Part shown: piece after piece, positions 3,468 to 28,206 of the stretch | How the letters are laid out: each line of letters opens with the position of its first letter | Numbering within the stretch: the first letter of the stretch is position 1 | Source of the DNA: Armatimonadota bacterium | GTDB taxonomy: Bacteria > Armatimonadota > UBA5829 | Direction of reading: 5' to 3' | Length of the DNA stretch: 60,229 nucleotides | NCBI GenBank assembly: GCA_039679645.1 | Contig: JBDKUO010000024.1 | Location: 1 to 60,229, forward strand | Made by a program: the position numbers and the translations under genes | Notes under the pieces: generated by a model | What the model saw: only the letters and a program-made list of their open reading frames with translations | Told to the model about the DNA's origin: nothing | Databases searched by the model: none

Positions 3468-4693
3468 TACACAAATGCCTCCAGGAAACGCTTGGCCAAG
3501 ATCGAATAGTCGTGAGATTTAAGCACATATTCATGTCCGCGCGCCCCCATTCGACTGCGCTCTTCGGGGTTCATCTTCATAAGAGTTAAAACCGCATCGG
3601 CAATATCCTTCTGACTGCCCGTGGATATCGATATGCCACACCCACTCTCGCTCACCATATCATTACCTGCATCTATCGACTGCACCACGGGCTTTGCAGC
3701 CATCATGTAATCCATAAGTTTATTCGGACTGATGCCAAACCTGAAAAGAGACTTGTGAGCCAGGCCAATGTACAATACATCCATCTTGCTCAGCAAGCTC
3801 GGAATTGATGCCTTCGGTACAGCGGGCAAAAACCTTACATTATTAAGACGCATGTTGCTCGCGGTTTTTATAAGTTTCTCTTTATCAGGCCCTTGCCCGA
3901 CTAAAATAAAAACAGCATTTGACCCTTCTGTCAGAGCGGCTGCTTCCATGAGGCGTTCGAGTGCATTAGCCGGCCCGTGAGCTCCCGCATAACAAACAAG
4001 AAACCTGCCCTCGCCTTGCAGCGCATCCAGAATATCTTTTTGCTCCTGTGGGATGGTCTGCTTGCTTTCCAGCCACTCGCTTGTATCGATCCCATTCGGC
4101 ACATAGCAAAACTTACCTTCTGCCAGGCCATGTTTGAGCATATGGCTCTCTGCAAGCGGCAACATAGATACCACTCTATCGCAGTGCTTGTATGCATAGT
4201 TCTCTGCCCACTGCATCAGCATGATAAACGGATGCCATTTGGACATTCCACCTATCTCCATAGGTGATAGCGGCCACAGGTCGTGGACTTCATATATCAA
4301 CTTGGCAGAGGCAAGCCGGGCAATTTTGCTGGCTGGATAATTGTCCAGGGGATATGTAGATGAGGCTATGACCACATCCGGCTTGATCGTCCGTGCAAGT
4401 TCGATTCTACGAAGAAGCAGTTGATTGGTAAAACTGAGCATGTTCTTTACACGCCCAACGCCATTCCCCGAATACGCTGGAGTCTTAAGCCAGATATAAT
4501 GGACTCCCTCGATTACCTCATGAGTCATATTGCCTTTGATCTGTGGATTACAGGTGCGAACATGCGAGTTTGAAGCAGCAATTATTGTTACTTCATGTCC
4601 AAGCCTTACCCATTCGCGAGCCATATAGAATGGTCGATATTCCATGCCATGCTTTATTGAGCCGGCGTAGTGGTTGATGAGTAAAATTTTCAT
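3467..4693 (-). CDS. Glycosyltransferase family 4 (WbuB-like)
   Basis: A 408-residue GT-B fold glycosyltransferase. The N-terminal domain has the WbuB-type opening MKILLINHYAGS and GMEYRPFYMAREW. The C-terminal donor-binding domain has CYAGAHGPAN, FILVGQGPDKE and FGISPNKLMDYMMAAKPVV, where the acidic residue expected in the EX7E region is replaced by a D/Y context. It would add a sugar from a nucleotide donor to the lipid-linked chain in the cytoplasm. I prefer ATG 4693 to the TTG at 4702: the family start is at MKILLI, although neither start has a strong Shine-Dalgarno site. It is the first gene of the minus-strand polysaccharide operon. Confidence 0.88.
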   Translation of the reverse strand: MKILLINHYAGSIKHGMEYRPFYMAREWVRLGHEVTIIAASNSHVRTCNPQIKGNMTHEVIEGVHYIWLKTPAYSGNGVGRVKNMLSFTNQLLLRRIELARTIKPDVVIASSTYPLDNYPASKIARLASAKLIYEVHDLWPLSPMEIGGMSKWHPFIMLMQWAENYAYKHCDRVVSMLPLAESHMLKHGLAEGKFCYVPNGIDTSEWLESKQTIPQEQKDILDALQGEGRFLVCYAGAHGPANALERLMEAAALTEGSNAVFILVGQGPDKEKLIKTASNMRLNNVRFLPAVPKASIPSLLSKMDVLYIGLAHKSLFRFGISPNKLMDYMMAAKPVVQSIDAGNDMVSESGCGISISTGSQKDIADAVLTLMKMNPEERSRMGARGHEYVLKSHDYSILAKRFLEAFV

Positions 4694-4827
4694 ATGATTC
4701 AAATATGCGCGGCAGCAGTTGAAAGAACTCTCTCATAGAAATGCACCGTTTAATCCACACATGCAGACCATTTATAGCGTTTCTTAAAGAATCCCCGTCC
4801 GTTCGGCGCGGCACCTTGCACGTTGGT

Positions 4828-18235: not shown

Positions 18236-18380
18236 GAAGGTTCGTTTAGTTTCCTTCCAGGCTCTTACCTGGAGGAAAAATACCCCTCCTTAGTCTCTTC
18301 CAGACGCTGCCGAGCGATGGCACTATCGCTGTACCTGTAAGTTCCTGTTCTTGATTTACGTTTGGAGGAGACACCCCAAG
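18236..18380 (+). other. Leader with alternative hairpins before the sigma factor
   Basis: TTCCTTCCAGG can pair with CCTGGAGGAA (about 18251-18277). The same GGAGG can instead pair with the CCTCC a few bases later, so the two folds exclude each other. AGCGAT/ATCGCT forms a further 6-bp hairpin near 18315-18332. The sigma gene ribosome site GGAGGAG is at 18364-18370. Confidence 0.35.
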
Positions 18381-18908
18381 ATGAACGCCTGTATATCACG
18401 GGCGCGCGAGGGTGACCAGTTAGCAAAGAGAAAGCTGGTCGAGGCCCTGCGCCCTAGAATAGCAAAAATGGCCGCATATTATGGTCGCATATGTTCGGAA
18501 GACCCTGATGATCTGCTGCAGGAGGCATGGCTGGGCCTGCTGGAGGCTCTTCCTGAGATCGACCTGAGGATCGGGACTCCTGAGCAGTATCTGATCGCCC
18601 GCGCAAGGTGGAAGCTGTTGGATGCGGTAAAGCGCGCCAAAGTGCGCCGGTGCAGTTCGCTTGAGGATGCCCCGGTCGAAACCATAGCCTCAGAGAGCGA
18701 CACGGCGATGTCATTCGCTTGTGTTTCTGAGTTTGTGGGGGAGTTGAAGGCAACCCAGCGCGAGGTGCTCGACTGCCTGCTTGCGGGGCTCACGTGGCGT
18801 GAGGCTGGTGAAAAGCTGGGATGCGCATCCGCTAACATTGCTTATCACGTGCGTCAGATCAGGCGGCGATATGAGGAATGGTCAGAGGAACCGGCATGCA
18901 TGATATAA
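18381..18908 (+). CDS. Sigma-70 family RNA polymerase sigma factor (ECF-like size)
   Basis: A 175-residue protein with sigma region 2 (about residues 10-90, with DPDDLLQEAWLGLLEALPEI and RARWKLLDAVKRAKVRR) and a sigma region 4 helix-turn-helix (about 128-165, LKATQREVLDCLLAGLTWRE then AGEKLGCASANIAYHVRQI). This two-domain layout and length fit ECF-type sigma factors. ATG 18381 was chosen with GGAGGAG about 10 bases upstream. No anti-sigma gene is adjacent. Its stop overlaps the start region of the acetyltransferase. It is preceded by an unusual structured leader with small ORFs, so its level may be controlled after initiation. Confidence 0.8.
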   Translation: MNACISRAREGDQLAKRKLVEALRPRIAKMAAYYGRICSEDPDDLLQEAWLGLLEALPEIDLRIGTPEQYLIARARWKLLDAVKRAKVRRCSSLEDAPVETIASESDTAMSFACVSEFVGELKATQREVLDCLLAGLTWREAGEKLGCASANIAYHVRQIRRRYEEWSEEPACMI

Positions 18909-23484: not shown

Positions 23485-24282
23485 TTAAGACCGTGCCAGT
23501 GCAGGTTTATTCACATGCTTAATGAGTCTTACGGTAGTGGTGCCGTCGAATTTGAATGTCACCTCATCCACCAGCATACGCATCATGTAGATACCCATGC
23601 CGCCTTCAAGCAGTGAGTTCGGCTTGTGCTCTGGAATAGTATCCGGAAGAAAACCCGCTCCGGGGTCTGTGATATCTATAGAAAGCCCTTGCGGACCGGC
23701 GACGCACTTTATTGATATTCGAAGCTCAGGATTGCACAGGCAGCCGTGTCTTATGGCATTCGCTATTGCCTCTCCAACGGCGATGAGTATATCCTGCGCC
23801 TCACTCCGGCTGAACGGCATGGATTCGACAACGTTCTCTATGCGGCTGCGGGCAATACCGGCTGTCTGCGGACATGCCGGAATGCTGAAGTCGCTGATGT
23901 GCCAAAATCCTCTGTCGTCATCGGTCGATTCCGGCCCGCCGCTTACAGGCATATCATTGACGGCTGAGTTAAAGTAGACTGCGGCTCCGCACATGGTCAG
24001 GACTCTGCTTACTTGTTCACTTGCTCCTATCAATTCAATGGCGGCTCCCCTGTCAACGGCTTTGTAGGCACACTGAATGAGCGCAGAGATACCGCTGGTG
24101 TCCATATAATGCACGTCACCCAGGTCCGCTTTCACAAGTTGATGGCCTGCAGACAGACACCGTTCAAAAGCTTCGGACATGCGCTCTCTGTTGTGAAAGC
24201 CGACCTGGCCGGTGAGTTTTACCGTAGGCGGATTTTCTATACTTACGTCCACTTTAAGATCGGGTATTGCGCATGTCATCAA
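23485..24282 (-). CDS. STAS domain fused to an RsbW-like HATPase (partner-switching protein)
   Basis: A 265-residue fusion. Residues about 1-110 are a STAS anti-sigma-antagonist domain with the phosphorylatable serine in YMDTSGISALI. Residues about 130-262 are an RsbW-type serine kinase with N-box EAIANAIRHG, G1-like DITDPGAGF and GGMGIYMMRMLVDEV. In the RsbVW scheme the kinase binds a sigma factor or its own antagonist, and phosphorylation of the STAS serine frees the kinase. Here both halves are one chain. It overlaps the PP2C phosphatase by 4 bases, so substrate and phosphatase are coupled. The target is not evident and no sigma gene is adjacent. Confidence 0.88.
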   Translation of the reverse strand: MMTCAIPDLKVDVSIENPPTVKLTGQVGFHNRERMSEAFERCLSAGHQLVKADLGDVHYMDTSGISALIQCAYKAVDRGAAIELIGASEQVSRVLTMCGAAVYFNSAVNDMPVSGGPESTDDDRGFWHISDFSIPACPQTAGIARSRIENVVESMPFSRSEAQDILIAVGEAIANAIRHGCLCNPELRISIKCVAGPQGLSIDITDPGAGFLPDTIPEHKPNSLLEGGMGIYMMRMLVDEVTFKFDGTTTVRLIKHVNKPALARS

Positions 24283-26006
24283 ACTTGCTCCTCGCCTTTT
24301 GTCTTGATTAACAGCATTGCTGCGTCATCACTAAGTTTGCCGCCCGATAACACAGCCGCCCGGTCAAGGATATGATCGCATATATCCCGAACCGATTCAT
24401 CCGCTTTATCTTCGATTATAGCCAATACGGCTTCGTGCCCGAGTCTGTCGCAGCCATGTCCCGCATCCGTTATTCCGTCTGTGTAAAAAAGCACGATGTC
24501 TCCTGCCGAAAGACTGATCGCATGTTCAAGATAATGCGCTTCGCCGAGCAGACCGAGAGCGGGCCCCGTGACATCCAGAGTCGTCGCGAATCCGGCCCTG
24601 CGGCTATGAAAGATCGGTTGTTCATGGCCGGCGTTTGCATATATGAGTCTATGCTTTTGCTCATCGATCACAGCATATACAAGCGTAACAAAAACCTCTG
24701 GAGGTGTGCAGGATGCCAGAGCTTTATTGAGCCTCATCAGGACACCGGCGGGGTCGTTCTCTCGAAGCGCATATGCCCTGAGCATATACTTGGTCATGGC
24801 GGTGTATACGGCTGCTTTGAGCCCCTTTCCCGATACATCCGCCATAACCACTCCGTATTGCCCTTTGCCTAAGGTGAAAACATCGTAGAAGTCTCCTCCA
24901 ACAAGTTCTTCGTCAAGGGCTGGCAGATAATGCTGGGCAATCTCGAAACCTTGTATCTCGGGCAGTTCATAAGGCACAAAGCTCCTCTGCAGTTTGTCTG
25001 CTATGTAATGCTCCCTTTGATAAATCTCTTGTATCCGCTTTCTTGCTGACTCCTGCTCGGTGATGTCTGTAGCTGCTACCAGGACGCCGGTGATGCTTTC
25101 ATCGCTGTCTCGAAGCGGAACGCTGTTTACAAGAAACGTTCTCATGCCACTGTCAGGACTCTGCCAGTGAATTGTCTCATCACTGCATGCCTGACCACTG
25201 ATCGAGCGAGCCAACGGATGGCTGTCAGGTTTTATGTGATTGCCGCTGTCATCAAATAAGCTGCAGGCACATTTAGGGCTAAATGCGTTATGTTCGTATA
25301 ACTGCTTTGCCGCCGAGTTGTGAAGTGCAACATTGCATTCTGCGTCATATACCAGTAATGGCACCGGTACTGCTTCGAGCAAGGTTATAAGCCGGGACTT
25401 TTCCATCTCGATCTCAGCAGCTCTTTTTTCAGCCAGCTCAGCCAGTTCCTGTAGTCTGTTGCGAGCGTTCACATCATCGCTTACATCCAGCGCGAGCACG
25501 GCCATGGCATTTATGGGACCGTTTTCGGAAGGTATTTTAAGATGAACAATGCTTCCGCTCCAGAATTTTGGACCTTGTGCAAATCCGTCGTATCGAAAAT
25601 TTCGGACTCGGATCGATTTTCCATTTTCGCGAGCATGGCGGAGCAATTTCATAAGGCCGGACTCTTCGGCCATCGGCAGCGCTTCATTCAATCTTTCACC
25701 CAGCGGCAGGGTCTTTTCACTGTAAAACCTGAAATATGTCCTGTTGCCGCCGAGTATTTTGAACTCTGAATCAACCAGAATAACGCCTGCCGGCAGATTT
25801 TCTATCAGGCAGCGCAATGATCTCTGCTGCTCGGAAAGCTCGACGAGCATTTTCTCCATCTGCAAGTGCAATTGCCTGTCCTTGGCACTGGAAAGGGGCA
25901 TCAGGCTTTCAATTTCACCTTCAAAATGAGATCCACGATTAATCCCTTCAGTCGCGCTTGCAACCAATTCGTCCATGATTTTAGTTGTTATGCGCTTCTT
26001 AGTCAT
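24279..26006 (-). CDS. PAS-PAS-PP2C (SpoIIE/RsbU-type) serine phosphatase
   Basis: A 575-residue cytoplasmic sensor phosphatase. It has an N-terminal coiled-coil segment (about 40-70), PAS 1 (about 65-190, ENLPAGVILVDSEFKILG), a linker coiled coil, PAS 2 (about 208-325, EAVPVPLLVYDAECNVALH) and a PP2C domain (about 350-570). Metal-binding motifs of the phosphatase are present: ELVGGDFYDVF, VVMADVSGKGLKAAV, LFYTDGITDAG and SDDAAMLLI. It should dephosphorylate the STAS serine of the next gene in response to a signal bound by the PAS domains. No membrane segments are seen. It is the first gene of the operon. Confidence 0.92.
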   Translation of the reverse strand: MTKKRITTKIMDELVASATEGINRGSHFEGEIESLMPLSSAKDRQLHLQMEKMLVELSEQQRSLRCLIENLPAGVILVDSEFKILGGNRTYFRFYSEKTLPLGERLNEALPMAEESGLMKLLRHARENGKSIRVRNFRYDGFAQGPKFWSGSIVHLKIPSENGPINAMAVLALDVSDDVNARNRLQELAELAEKRAAEIEMEKSRLITLLEAVPVPLLVYDAECNVALHNSAAKQLYEHNAFSPKCACSLFDDSGNHIKPDSHPLARSISGQACSDETIHWQSPDSGMRTFLVNSVPLRDSDESITGVLVAATDITEQESARKRIQEIYQREHYIADKLQRSFVPYELPEIQGFEIAQHYLPALDEELVGGDFYDVFTLGKGQYGVVMADVSGKGLKAAVYTAMTKYMLRAYALRENDPAGVLMRLNKALASCTPPEVFVTLVYAVIDEQKHRLIYANAGHEQPIFHSRRAGFATTLDVTGPALGLLGEAHYLEHAISLSAGDIVLFYTDGITDAGHGCDRLGHEAVLAIIEDKADESVRDICDHILDRAAVLSGGKLSDDAAMLLIKTKGEEQV

Positions 26007-26299
26007 TGAGCATTTCCCTGAAAGCTTGAGGTATAGAAGTGATTGATGAGGCTGTTCGGAACGATGTCAAGCGTGTTGCAGTGATATTGAACCATACAAG
26101 TTCTAGCACGCGTATTAAATAACAAAGCCCGGCTGACACAACTTGCTCTCCCTAAGCCAGATTTGGGGATGTGACTGCAGCTTTGCCGTCACGACTGCGT
26201 CATTACTGCTTCGCAAATACGAGAGTAAATTATCACAGCAAATCGGAAAAGTCAACCGTTATTTGCGCATGGGATTCGACAAATTACTGGTTTTGTAAT

Positions 26300-26329
26300 G
26301 GAACATATGCGGGGCGGGCATCGTATAAT
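26300..26329 (+). promoter_or_regulatory. Promoter of small-RNA unit 1 (ECF-like GGAACA-N16-CGTATA)
   Basis: GGAACA (26300-26305), 16 bases, then CGTATAAT (26322-26329). The AAC-type -35 with N16 and a CGTA -10 fits ECF sigma promoters. The -10 also reads as TATAAT for a housekeeping factor. The same arrangement recurs 133 bases downstream. Confidence 0.6.
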
Positions 26330-26334
26330 AAATA

Positions 26335-26394
26335 GCAAACCTTCCCACCCTCTTTTCTCACCCCGGTCCACCCAGGACCGGGGTCACTTTTTTT
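26335..26394 (+). ncRNA. Small RNA, tandem unit 1
   Basis: About 60 nt. The predicted 5' end reads GCAAACCUUCCCACCCUC, a pyrimidine-rich single strand with CCC and CCUC motifs complementary to ribosome-binding sites. A 10-bp perfect stem (ACCCCGGTCC, 26360-26369, with GGACCGGGGT, 26375-26384) has an ACCCA loop and is followed by CAC and seven T. There is no ORF. Unit 2 repeats it with compensatory stem changes, which supports a functional RNA. Class unknown. Confidence 0.7.
26360..26394 (+). terminator. Terminator of small-RNA unit 1
   Basis: 10-bp stem, ACCCA loop, then TTTTTTT at 26388-26394. Confidence 0.88.
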
Positions 26395-26432
26395 GTGCTG
26401 AAAATGACTTCACTCCTTTTTTGTCATAAAGT

Positions 26433-26462
26433 GGAACAAATGTGGCGTGAGTATCGTATATA
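26433..26462 (+). promoter_or_regulatory. Promoter of small-RNA unit 2 (ECF-like GGAACA-N16-CGTATA)
   Basis: GGAACA (26433-26438), 16 bases, then CGTATA (26455-26460), aligned with unit 1 without gaps at an offset of 133 bases. Here the hexamer aligned to the unit 1 -10 is TATATA, so the CGTA core is better conserved than TATAAT. Confidence 0.6.
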
Positions 26463-26467
26463 TAATA

Positions 26468-26528
26468 GCAAACCTTCCCACCCTCTTTTCTCGCCTCCGG
26501 TCCACCCAGGATCGGAGGTAATTTTTTT
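26468..26528 (+). ncRNA. Small RNA, tandem unit 2
   Basis: The 5' single-stranded part is identical to unit 1 for at least 25 bases (starting GCAAACCTTCCCACCCTC). The terminator stem differs: CCTCCGGTCC (26494-26503) with GGATCGGAGG (26509-26518). Two base pairs differ from unit 1 on both sides (A-T to C-G, C-G to T-A), so pairing is kept while sequence changes; one G-U wobble is present. The ACCCA loop and U-run are kept. Confidence 0.7.
26494..26528 (+). terminator. Terminator of small-RNA unit 2
   Basis: 10-bp stem, ACCCA loop, TAA, then TTTTTTT at 26522-26528. It also separates the sRNA from the converging ABC permease gene, whose stop is at 26542. Confidence 0.88.
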
Positions 26529-26541
26529 GTCTGCCGACACA

Positions 26542-28206
26542 TCAACTGGATGTAGGATCGAATCTGCGGAAAATCAGACCGGAGACTGCGACGCCTGCGG
26601 CCCCCAGTGCGAGATTGCCGATAGATGTGGTGATAGCGGCGGTATAGTAGGAAGTTTTGAAGACATAAATGCAGATAAGCGCCAGGACGATTGTAGGCAA
26701 GACCGCAATCGAGACCAGCAGGAATGAAAACAGACCGCTGATGTAGTTTTGCGCGGTATCACGCGCATCGGGGTAGGCCAGGCCGGATATATTTGTAAGT
26801 GAGACATTAGCAAATCCCAAAAAGGGAGCGCCCAAAGCGCATGCGAGGAGTGTCTCGCCCCGAGTCTGTGGAATGATCGCCCACATTGCTGCGGAGAACA
26901 CAAGCACACCGGCGGTCAGATAAATTACTGAGTTCACTGTTTGCGCCAGCATTATTTTCCAAGCCGCTATCGGCATTGACTTCAAGATATTTGCGTGCTT
27001 TAACTCAGTCCTTACCTCATTTGGAGCCATCAGTGACAGAAGCCAGACTACGTAAAGGAGCACGACAGGCAAATACGGCAAAATCTCCCCGATTTGTCCC
27101 GAGGCGACCTGTCTTATTATATAGACCATTACAACAGGCACAACAAGCATCATTCCAAGCTGACTTTTGGAGACTCTGTATCGAAGCAGCAGGCTCTTCC
27201 ACAGCAGTGCGGTAGCTCCGGCGCCAAACGGCGGTATGTCCAGGCCGGATAGGCGTTTTGTCCCCTTTTCCCGCAAGGCCGCCATTCGGACACCTGCAAA
27301 GTCACCCTGGCGCATCGCCAGCTTCCTGCGCGCCATTCTCGCGCTTATTCCCAGAGAAGGCTCGTATATGTTTTCTTTTCGAGACATCAACAGCGCGAAG
27401 CTGCCGATTGCAAGTGCCCATAATTGAACGAACAGCCTCCACTCTTCCGAGGTCATGCCCGTAAGCGGCGCCAGAAGCAGAGCGGTGCACCAGCGCACCG
27501 GCGCAAAGAAAAAGCTGATTACCGGCGAGTTTGTTGCCCATAATATGCTTGCATAACTGCTGCCTGTTGCGAAATACTGGAATAGGCCATACGCGATTGC
27601 CGATATTGGGCCGACGAAGAGAATGACCTTGATAATTAGGCCTGCCTGTCTGAGCTTCTCAAAGCCGAAAGTGAAAATGATATTAATGGTATGCGCAATA
27701 TTGATGACAGTGACCAGCAGTACAGTCAATCCGACGATGCTTACCAGCCCCAACGGCATCATCCGAACGCCAAGCGCCTGATATACAGGCCCGCCTATTA
27801 TAAAATAGAGGAATGTTACATAGAAGCCGTTCTTGAGGTAGTCCTTGATAAGCTGGATCAGCAGAACATGTCTGCGGCTGACCGGGGTTGGAAATAGAAA
27901 GTCGATGTGGGCAATCGAGAAGATGAGAGCGCCCGAGCTAAAGGAATTGTAGATAACCATCATGCATCCAACGCTCAGGACAATGAAGAGGATCGCTTCA
28001 ACTACCTCCGGCTGAATTGCCTGCAAGGCATCAAAGTCCGGTTGTCTCGGCCTGACTCCGCTCGAGAACACGACCAGCCCCTGAATCATCATCGACACAA
28101 CGTAAGCAGCCATCAACAGAAACGGAATCAGCCTTTTGGGGCTGCGGATGGAGTTCTTTATCGAGTTGACAAACTGTCTCAGCTCAAGGTATAGCAGGGG
28201 TCTCAA
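26542..28206 (-). CDS. ABC exporter permease
   Basis: A 554-residue integral membrane protein of the putative ABC exporter type, with about 10-12 hydrophobic segments in two halves. It opens MRPLLYLELRQFVNSIK; a cytoplasmic middle stretch (SLGISARMARRKLAMRQGD) separates the halves; and the second half begins ALLWKSLLLRYRVSKSQLG, a repeat of the N-terminal pattern. It contains PTPVSRRHVLLIQLIKDYL, a typical coupling element after a membrane pair. The substrate is unknown. Its start lies inside the ATPase gene (23-base overlap), so ATPase and permease form one transport operon. Confidence 0.78.
   Translation of the reverse strand: MRPLLYLELRQFVNSIKNSIRSPKRLIPFLLMAAYVVSMMIQGLVVFSSGVRPRQPDFDALQAIQPEVVEAILFIVLSVGCMMVIYNSFSSGALIFSIAHIDFLFPTPVSRRHVLLIQLIKDYLKNGFYVTFLYFIIGGPVYQALGVRMMPLGLVSIVGLTVLLVTVINIAHTINIIFTFGFEKLRQAGLIIKVILFVGPISAIAYGLFQYFATGSSYASILWATNSPVISFFFAPVRWCTALLLAPLTGMTSEEWRLFVQLWALAIGSFALLMSRKENIYEPSLGISARMARRKLAMRQGDFAGVRMAALREKGTKRLSGLDIPPFGAGATALLWKSLLLRYRVSKSQLGMMLVVPVVMVYIIRQVASGQIGEILPYLPVVLLYVVWLLSLMAPNEVRTELKHANILKSMPIAAWKIMLAQTVNSVIYLTAGVLVFSAAMWAIIPQTRGETLLACALGAPFLGFANVSLTNISGLAYPDARDTAQNYISGLFSFLLVSIAVLPTIVLALICIYVFKTSYYTAAITTSIGNLALGAAGVAVSGLIFRRFDPTSS

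What the first reader, a model, noticed from the sequence alone, without database searches (positions are those of the whole stretch)
26298..26530. Two tandem small-RNA genes with covarying terminator stems and shared ECF-like promoters
Two units 133 bases apart each hold a promoter-like GGAACA-N16-CGTATA, an identical leader of at least 25 bases rich in CCC and CCUC, and a terminator hairpin with an ACCCA loop and seven T. The stems differ at two base pairs in a way that keeps pairing (A-T to C-G, C-G to T-A). This is the signature of selection on RNA structure. The single-stranded C-rich leader could pair with GGAGG or GGGTGGG ribosome sites, so the RNAs may repress translation. Promoter spacing recalls ECF promoters (AAC -35, CGTA -10). 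They lie beside a PAS-PP2C/STAS-kinase module, so stress control is a reasonable guess. I recognise no described family.
Basis: partly seen in the sequence, partly recalled or inferred. Interest (0 to 1): 0.85.

Follow-up and report, generated by a model that had tools for sequence, protein, structure and literature searches.

The report
Envelope-stress small RNAs in Armatimonadota
Two side-by-side genes make short regulatory RNAs of a previously undescribed family, found across one class of the little-studied bacterial phylum Armatimonadota, and their on-switch matches that of a conserved envelope-stress sigma factor, much as in the well-known stress RNAs of E. coli.

Summary
Both units exist at the stated positions: promoter GGAAC-N17-CGTA, a 29-nt identical block, a perfect terminator stem, seven T. 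They stand alone in an intergenic region; both neighbouring genes are on the opposite strand. A covariance model finds 1-8 copies in 20 of 28 genomes of the class (Armatimonadota) and no convincing copies elsewhere in the phylum. In 41 distinct copies the leader is nearly invariant, while all eight modelled stem pairs covary. Of these, 32 have GGAAC-CGT with a spacer of exactly 17, and six have sigma70-type promoters, so the RNA itself is what is conserved. Rfam has no match.

Better supported is an ECF sigma / zinc-finger anti-sigma / HtrA operon elsewhere in the genome. It is conserved across the class, and its own promoter is GGAAC-N17/18-CGTA in 22 of 24 genomes (2 of 277 control genes). 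Hfq is present. The C-rich 5' leader is most likely the target-pairing seed, but targets are unknown: the leader prefers ribosome sites no more than shuffled leaders do.

Verdict: a new RNA family doing a known kind of job. Transcription, sigma dependence and repression are all untested.

The parts
26300..26327 (+). ECF-type promoter of sRNA 1: GGAAC (26300-26304), 17-bp spacer, CGTATA (26322-26327)
   Evidence: spacer is 17 in 32 of 32 ECF-type copies
26335..26394 (+). sRNA gene 1, about 60 nt; the 5' end is inferred from the distance to the -10 element, not mapped
   Evidence: fold; model match 26335-26395, 69.7 bits
26335..26359 (+). single-stranded C/U-rich leader GCAAACCTTCCCACCCTCTTTTCTC, the proposed pairing seed
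   Evidence: nearly invariant from genus to class; unpaired in the fold
26360..26394 (+). intrinsic terminator: stem 26360-26369/26375-26384, loop ACCCA, T7 26388-26394
26433..26460 (+). ECF-type promoter of sRNA 2: GGAAC (26433-26437), 17-bp spacer, CGTATA (26455-26460)
26468..26528 (+). sRNA gene 2, about 61 nt; the 5' end is inferred
   Evidence: fold; model match 26468-26530, 71.2 bits
26468..26492 (+). identical C/U-rich leader of sRNA 2
26493..26528 (+). intrinsic terminator 2: stem 26493-26503/26509-26519, loop ACCCA, T7 26522-26528
24279..26006 (-). neighbour, not part of the system: PAS-SpoIIE (PP2C) phosphatase gene, transcribed away from the sRNAs
   Evidence: neighbour kept only in G004
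26542..28206 (-). neighbour, convergent: putative ABC exporter gene; shows that the RNAs are not leaders of a downstream gene
   Evidence: neighbour kept in the genus and in g4

Best explanation
The two units are tandem copies of a trans-acting small regulatory RNA family confined to one class of Armatimonadota. SHOWN BY SEQUENCE: a GGAAC-N17-CGT promoter, a near-invariant unstructured C/U-rich 5' leader of about 24 nt, and a covarying intrinsic terminator with a U tail; several copies per genome; Hfq encoded in the same genomes. INFERRED, STRONG: the promoter is read by an autoregulated ECF sigma factor of the RpoE/SigW type, encoded with a zinc-finger (RseA_N-like) anti-sigma and a DegP/HtrA protease, so the RNAs belong to an envelope-stress regulon. 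INFERRED, MODERATE: on stress the sigma is released, the RNAs accumulate, and the 5' leader pairs, probably with Hfq, with G/A-rich ribosome-binding regions of several mRNAs and blocks their translation. This would be the noncoding arm of the response, as for MicA, RybB and MicL in E. coli and FoxI and FoxJ in Fusobacterium. NOT SHOWN: transcription, the sigma link in the cell, Hfq binding, and any target.
For: Family: the model finds it in 20 of 28 class genomes, 1-8 copies each, E down to 1e-21; convincing matches stop at the class, and elsewhere in 291 phylum genomes the best score is 30 bits. Structure: 8 of 8 pairs covary, 99.1% of cells paired, 0/500 shuffles, and sliding the partners destroys it; folds z = -4.8 and -5.0. 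RNA as the unit of selection: 6 copies carry a sigma70-type TTGN3-N17/18-TATAAT promoter in front of the same leader and terminator. Stand-alone: both neighbours are on the opposite strand. Sigma link: ECF + zf-HC2/RseA_N anti-sigma + HtrA operon in the own genome; orthologous operon in 24 genomes; GGAAC-N17/18-CGTA 38-64 nt upstream of the ECF gene in 22 of 24 against 2 of 277 control genes within 200 nt and none of the 22 other own-genome ECF genes tested (one has GGAAC-N16-CGTC); GGAAC-N17-CGTC 66-159 nt upstream of HtrA in 9 of 24. NCBIfam's best matches for the ECF are SigW, SigE and RpoE, all below their cut-offs. Hfq in 24 of 28 genomes, own included. Own genome has two further sRNA-like genes with GGAAC-CGTA promoters and leaders carrying 9-11 nt of the 16S 3' tail.
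Against: No expression data exist for these uncultured organisms. The leader's affinity for start regions is no better than that of composition-matched shuffles. No extended complementary target was found in five genomes beyond control level. Start regions of SLH/OmpM-like porin genes, the natural envelope targets, do not pair unusually well with this leader. The promoter motif is not enriched genome-wide, so the regulon looks small. Family f5 has the sigma operon and promoter but no clear copy of this RNA, and three of 41 copies have neither promoter type.
Confidence: 0.72

Rival explanations
1. The RNAs are generic decoys of the ribosome: the leader imitates the 3' tail of 16S rRNA (CACCUCCUUUCU) and binds Shine-Dalgarno sequences broadly, lowering initiation on many mRNAs during stress rather than acting on a defined target set.
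For: 16S tail is GGATCACCTCCTTTCTAAGG in nine class genomes. Leaders in family f4 share the exact 10-mer CCTCCTTTCT; the own-genome sRNA-B shares the 11-mer ACCTCCTTTCT; sRNA-C and the G006/G010 RNA share CCTCCTTTC. sRNA-B prefers start regions over all 20 shuffled leaders, f4 leaders over 19 of 20.
Against: The leader of the window's own family (f1) has CCCTCTTTTCT, breaks the match, and shows no start-region preference beyond composition. Its 5' half, GCAAACCUUCCCACC, is not tail-like yet is equally conserved, which points to specific targets.
Confidence: 0.12
2. The RNAs bind and titrate a C-rich-RNA-binding protein or sponge another RNA, so the leader is a protein-binding or sponge site rather than an mRNA seed.
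For: Near-invariance of the leader, multicopy tandem organisation, and no extended mRNA complementarity are features shared with titrating RNAs.
Against: One leader copy per RNA rather than repeated motifs in loops; no candidate protein identified; the anatomy (5' seed, U-rich stretch, terminator with U tail) is that of Hfq-type mRNA-pairing sRNAs and Hfq is present.
Confidence: 0.09
3. The sRNAs are real, but a different ECF sigma factor, or the adjacent PAS-PP2C/STAS partner-switching module, controls them.
For: The own genome has 34 sigma70 region-2 matches, an ECF gene lies in the window at 18351-18908, and related ECFs can share promoter preferences.
Against: Of 23 own ECF genes tested, only the C40 ECF has GGAAC-N17-CGTA upstream, and this is conserved in 22 of 24 orthologues. 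The PAS-SpoIIE neighbour is kept in only one other genome.
Confidence: 0.15
4. Not functional RNAs: a tandem duplication of a promoter-terminator cassette or a mobile or repeat element.
For: Two near-copies 133 bp apart in one intergenic region.
Against: Conservation across orders and families with diverged spacers, covarying stems, an unchanging 17-bp spacer, differing genomic neighbours and even differing promoter types.
Confidence: 0.02

Closest known systems
FoxI and FoxJ, sigmaE-dependent sRNAs of Fusobacterium nucleatum (PMC11005410)
   Same: ECF sigmaE-type envelope-stress control outside Proteobacteria, promoter shared with the sigma gene itself, C-stretch seed, more than one sRNA per regulon
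   Different: FoxJ is about 156 nt and its C-stretch is predicted in a loop; here the RNAs are about 60 nt with the C-rich stretch free at the 5' end, in tandem copies, and Hfq is encoded. No sequence homology was looked for beyond Rfam, which gave no match
MicA, RybB and MicL, sigmaE-dependent sRNAs of E. coli (PMC12249550)
   Same: Control inferred from an RpoE-RseA-type system; RybB-like layout of 5' seed, then terminator with U tail; several sRNAs in one regulon
   Different: Unrelated sequences; outer-membrane-protein targets are proven there and unknown here; promoter -10 is CGTA/CGTC here rather than the TCTGA type (own knowledge)
LhrC1-5 of Listeria (PMC4132741)
   Same: Multicopy sRNAs, envelope-stress induced, CU-rich UCCC motifs that pair with ribosome-binding regions
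   Different: Controlled by the LisRK two-component system; three CU-rich sites per RNA, partly in loops
GsrN of Caulobacter (PMC5869019)
   Same: ECF-controlled stress sRNA with a C-rich recognition element that is its most conserved part
   Different: General-stress sigmaT (EcfG) control, C-rich element in a loop, positive regulation of katG

Membership tests
Stand-alone trans-acting bacterial sRNA gene | Own promoter and own intrinsic terminator, no co-oriented downstream gene | tested here: met
Stand-alone trans-acting bacterial sRNA gene | Sequence and structure conserved in relatives | tested here: met
   20 of 28 class genomes; covariation
Stand-alone trans-acting bacterial sRNA gene | A discrete transcript is made | not testable with these tools
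   no transcriptome is held
sigmaE-type (ECF) envelope-stress sRNA | Promoter of the class read by the envelope-stress ECF sigma | tested here: met
   same GGAAC-N17/18-CGTA at the ECF gene itself in 22 of 24 genomes and at HtrA in 9 of 24; motif match only, not transcription
sigmaE-type (ECF) envelope-stress sRNA | The sigma sits with an anti-sigma factor and an envelope protease | tested here: met
sigmaE-type (ECF) envelope-stress sRNA | The ECF is an RpoE equivalog | tested here: not met
   NCBIfam RpoE, SigW and SigE models match well but below their cut-offs: an RpoE/SigW-like ECF, not RpoE itself
sigmaE-type (ECF) envelope-stress sRNA | Represses outer-membrane-protein mRNAs | tested here: inconclusive
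   SLH/OmpM-like start regions do not pair unusually with this leader; sRNA-C gives top-3% scores for two of three
Hfq-dependent sRNA | Hfq present in the organism | tested here: met
Hfq-dependent sRNA | Binds Hfq | not testable with these tools
   anatomy compatible only
Any described Rfam family | Covariance-model match | tested here: not met
Anti-Shine-Dalgarno sRNA | Leader prefers start regions beyond composition | tested here: not met
   window family (f1) 11 of 20 shuffles as good; f4 leader 1 of 20; sRNA-B 0 of 20

The most novel reading that the evidence does not exclude
Armatimonadota have an envelope-stress regulon whose noncoding arm is a set of several unrelated sRNAs that all carry copies of the 16S rRNA 3' tail, so that the stress sigma factor throttles translation by mimicking the ribosome's own mRNA-recognition sequence.
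Probability: 0.15. Interest if true: 0.8.

Novelty: new member of a known kind. Interest (0 to 1): 0.6.

Why it matters
I found no report of small RNAs or of an envelope-stress sigma regulon in Armatimonadota in the paper library. If right, this is an independent case, after Proteobacteria and Fusobacteriota, of an ECF envelope-stress sigma factor with a noncoding arm, in a third and distant lineage. It makes a concrete, testable case for how often this circuit has evolved. It also supplies a promoter consensus, a sigma candidate and an RNA family model for genomes that have no experimental annotation.

Tried and rejected
Rfam, gathering and E<=1 thresholds: no match. Stress-module adjacency as the explanation: neighbour not conserved. 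Leader as part of a downstream gene's 5' UTR: the downstream gene is convergent. Non-Armatimonadota hits of the promoter-plus-leader pattern (8 of 26): coding-looking DNA without terminators, about the number I expected by chance. Weak phylum hits (f11, f16, f32 and others): mostly ordinary terminators or 3' UTRs. Long antisense targets: none above control. Genome-wide regulon from the motif alone: not enriched over the reversed control. SLH/OmpM-like porins as targets of this leader: not supported. Error of mine: my script took an alignment row for the window, so those samples cover other contigs of the genome (400 kb) and exclude the window itself; the conclusions do not depend on it.

Full report
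WHAT IS THERE. The window is contig C24 of a 3.41-Mb genome; named records of its relatives are Armatimonadota metagenome assemblies, among them UBA5829. Between two genes on the minus strand (24279-26006, PAS-SpoIIE phosphatase; 26542-28206, putative ABC exporter) lie two plus-strand units 133 bp apart. Each has GGAAC-N17-CGTATA, then about 8 nt further a leader GCAAACCUUCCCACCCUCUUUUCUC, a perfect stem with an ACCCA loop, and seven T. The identical block is 29 nt, whereas the promoter spacers agree at only 11 of 17 positions. Predicted folds leave the leader fully single-stranded. Because the downstream gene is convergent, these cannot be 5' leaders or attenuators of it.

IT IS A CONSERVED RNA FAMILY. 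A leader search with up to 3 mismatches hit 17 of 61 relatives; the reversed control matched in one genome, of another class. A covariance model from 26 units found 20 of 28 class genomes with 1-8 copies each. Over 291 genomes of the phylum nothing outside the class exceeded about 30 bits, and the weak hits I read were mostly ordinary terminators or 3' UTRs. Leaders differ at two or three positions between families f1 and f4, whose candidate sigma factors are only about 55% identical. The stem sequences diverge freely but pair: 99.1% of cells, changes on both sides at all 8 pairs, 0 of 500 shuffles, and sliding the partner by one column drops pairing to about 60%. That alignment was fitted to the model, so it leans towards the structure, but the size of the effect leaves no doubt that the terminator is real. 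Since a covarying terminator stem is expected of any intrinsic terminator, I regard the invariant leader as the more telling feature.

TWO PROMOTER CLASSES. Of 41 distinct leader-anchored copies, 32 carry GGAAC-CGT with a spacer of exactly 17 although 14-20 was allowed; six, all in family f4, carry TTGN3-N17/18-TATAAT-like promoters; three have neither. The same RNA thus persists under two kinds of control, which argues that the RNA and not the DNA arrangement is under selection.

WHO DRIVES IT. The own genome has 34 sigma region-2 matches. I examined the upstream DNA of 23 ECF genes: only one has GGAAC-N17-CGTA. It encodes an ECF sigma factor (197 aa) followed by a zf-HC2/RseA_N-like anti-sigma and a Do-family HtrA/DegP protease, the layout of an envelope-stress operon. 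The operon is conserved in 24 genomes of the class, and 22 of the 24 have GGAAC-N17 or N18-CGTA 38-64 nt upstream of the ECF gene. In 277 control genes the motif (A or C at the last position) lies within 200 nt upstream in two. A second such promoter, GGAAC-N17-CGTC, stands before HtrA in nine genomes of family f1. ECF sigma factors that share a promoter with their own gene are the usual case, so this sigma is the best candidate for the sRNA promoters. The link is by motif only. The motif alone is not enriched in the whole genome, which suggests a small regulon or weaker sites elsewhere. The sigma operon is more widespread than this RNA: family f5 has the operon and its promoter, but only divergent sRNA-like hits.

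HOW IT MIGHT WORK. Hfq is encoded in 24 of 28 genomes including this one. The anatomy (free 5' C-rich seed, U-rich stretch, terminator with U tail) is that of Hfq-type sRNAs (established knowledge). The most likely mechanism is therefore base pairing of the leader with G/A-rich ribosome-binding regions and repression. I could not show targets. Against 277 start regions the leader's preference over internal coding sequence was no greater than that of shuffled leaders, which means that composition alone explains it. No long complementary site exists in five genomes beyond control. SLH/OmpM-like genes, plausible envelope targets, are not special for this leader.

RELATED RNAs. The own genome has two further sRNA-like genes on contig C40 (L089 826-936 and 972-1087) with GGAAC-N17/18-CGTA promoters, CU-rich leaders and terminators, conserved in G004; G006 and G010 have another. 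Their leaders contain 9 to 11 nt identical to the 16S 3' tail, and family-f4 copies of the main family contain 10. This suggests that ribosome-site pairing is a shared theme. CU-rich sRNAs that bind Shine-Dalgarno sites will resemble the anti-Shine-Dalgarno for that reason alone, so I keep true mimicry as a rival (0.12) and as the most novel case.

WHAT IS KNOWN. sigmaE-dependent sRNAs are established in Proteobacteria (MicA, RybB, MicL; PMC12249550) and in Fusobacterium (FoxI, FoxJ, with C-stretch seeds; PMC11005410). LhrC1-5 (PMC4132741) is the nearest multicopy, CU-rich, envelope-stress parallel and GsrN (PMC5869019) another ECF-driven, C-rich stress sRNA. Rfam has no match, and searches of the paper library found no Armatimonadota sRNA or ECF work; that library lacks most subscription papers. 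I rate this a new family of a known kind. The confidence of 0.72 covers the whole chain of family, sigma control and mRNA pairing; that these are real sRNA genes I would put near 0.97, and sigma control near 0.8.

Noticed in passing
L089 826-936 and 972-1087 (own genome, contig C40, about 4525-4640 and 4670-4790): Two more tandem sRNA-like genes with GGAAC-N17/18-CGTA promoters; leaders hold ACCTCCTTTCT and CCTCCTTTC, identical to the 16S rRNA 3' tail; orthologues in L090.
   Followed up: partly
L106 905-1045 and L107: A further sRNA-like gene with promoter GGAAC-N17-CGTATAATA, leader TTCTCCTCCTTTCC and terminator in genomes G006 and G010.
   Followed up: partly
L216 8836-11660 (minus strand): ECF sigma / zf-HC2 anti-sigma / HtrA operon with GGAAC-N17-CGT promoters before the ECF gene and before HtrA; apparent envelope-stress operon of this class.
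   Followed up: yes
L200, own contig C25 at 21638 (minus strand): Strong ECF-type promoter (matrix score 21.5) before a short cysteine-pair (CxC..CxxC) zinc-ribbon-like ORF and a terminator; may be another regulon member.
   Followed up: no
L209 (G047, family f11): CCTCCTTTCTTT directly before an intrinsic terminator, 10 nt identical to the 16S tail, outside the class; possibly an unrelated anti-Shine-Dalgarno sRNA.
   Followed up: no
L204 and L205 (family f32): A leader-like CTTCCCACCCTCTCTC right after the stop codon of a possibly dockerin-like gene and before a terminator; chance or a 3'-UTR-derived form.
   Followed up: no
window 18351-18908: An ECF sigma gene between two GNAT acetyltransferase genes, without GGAAC-N17-CGTA upstream.
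   Followed up: partly
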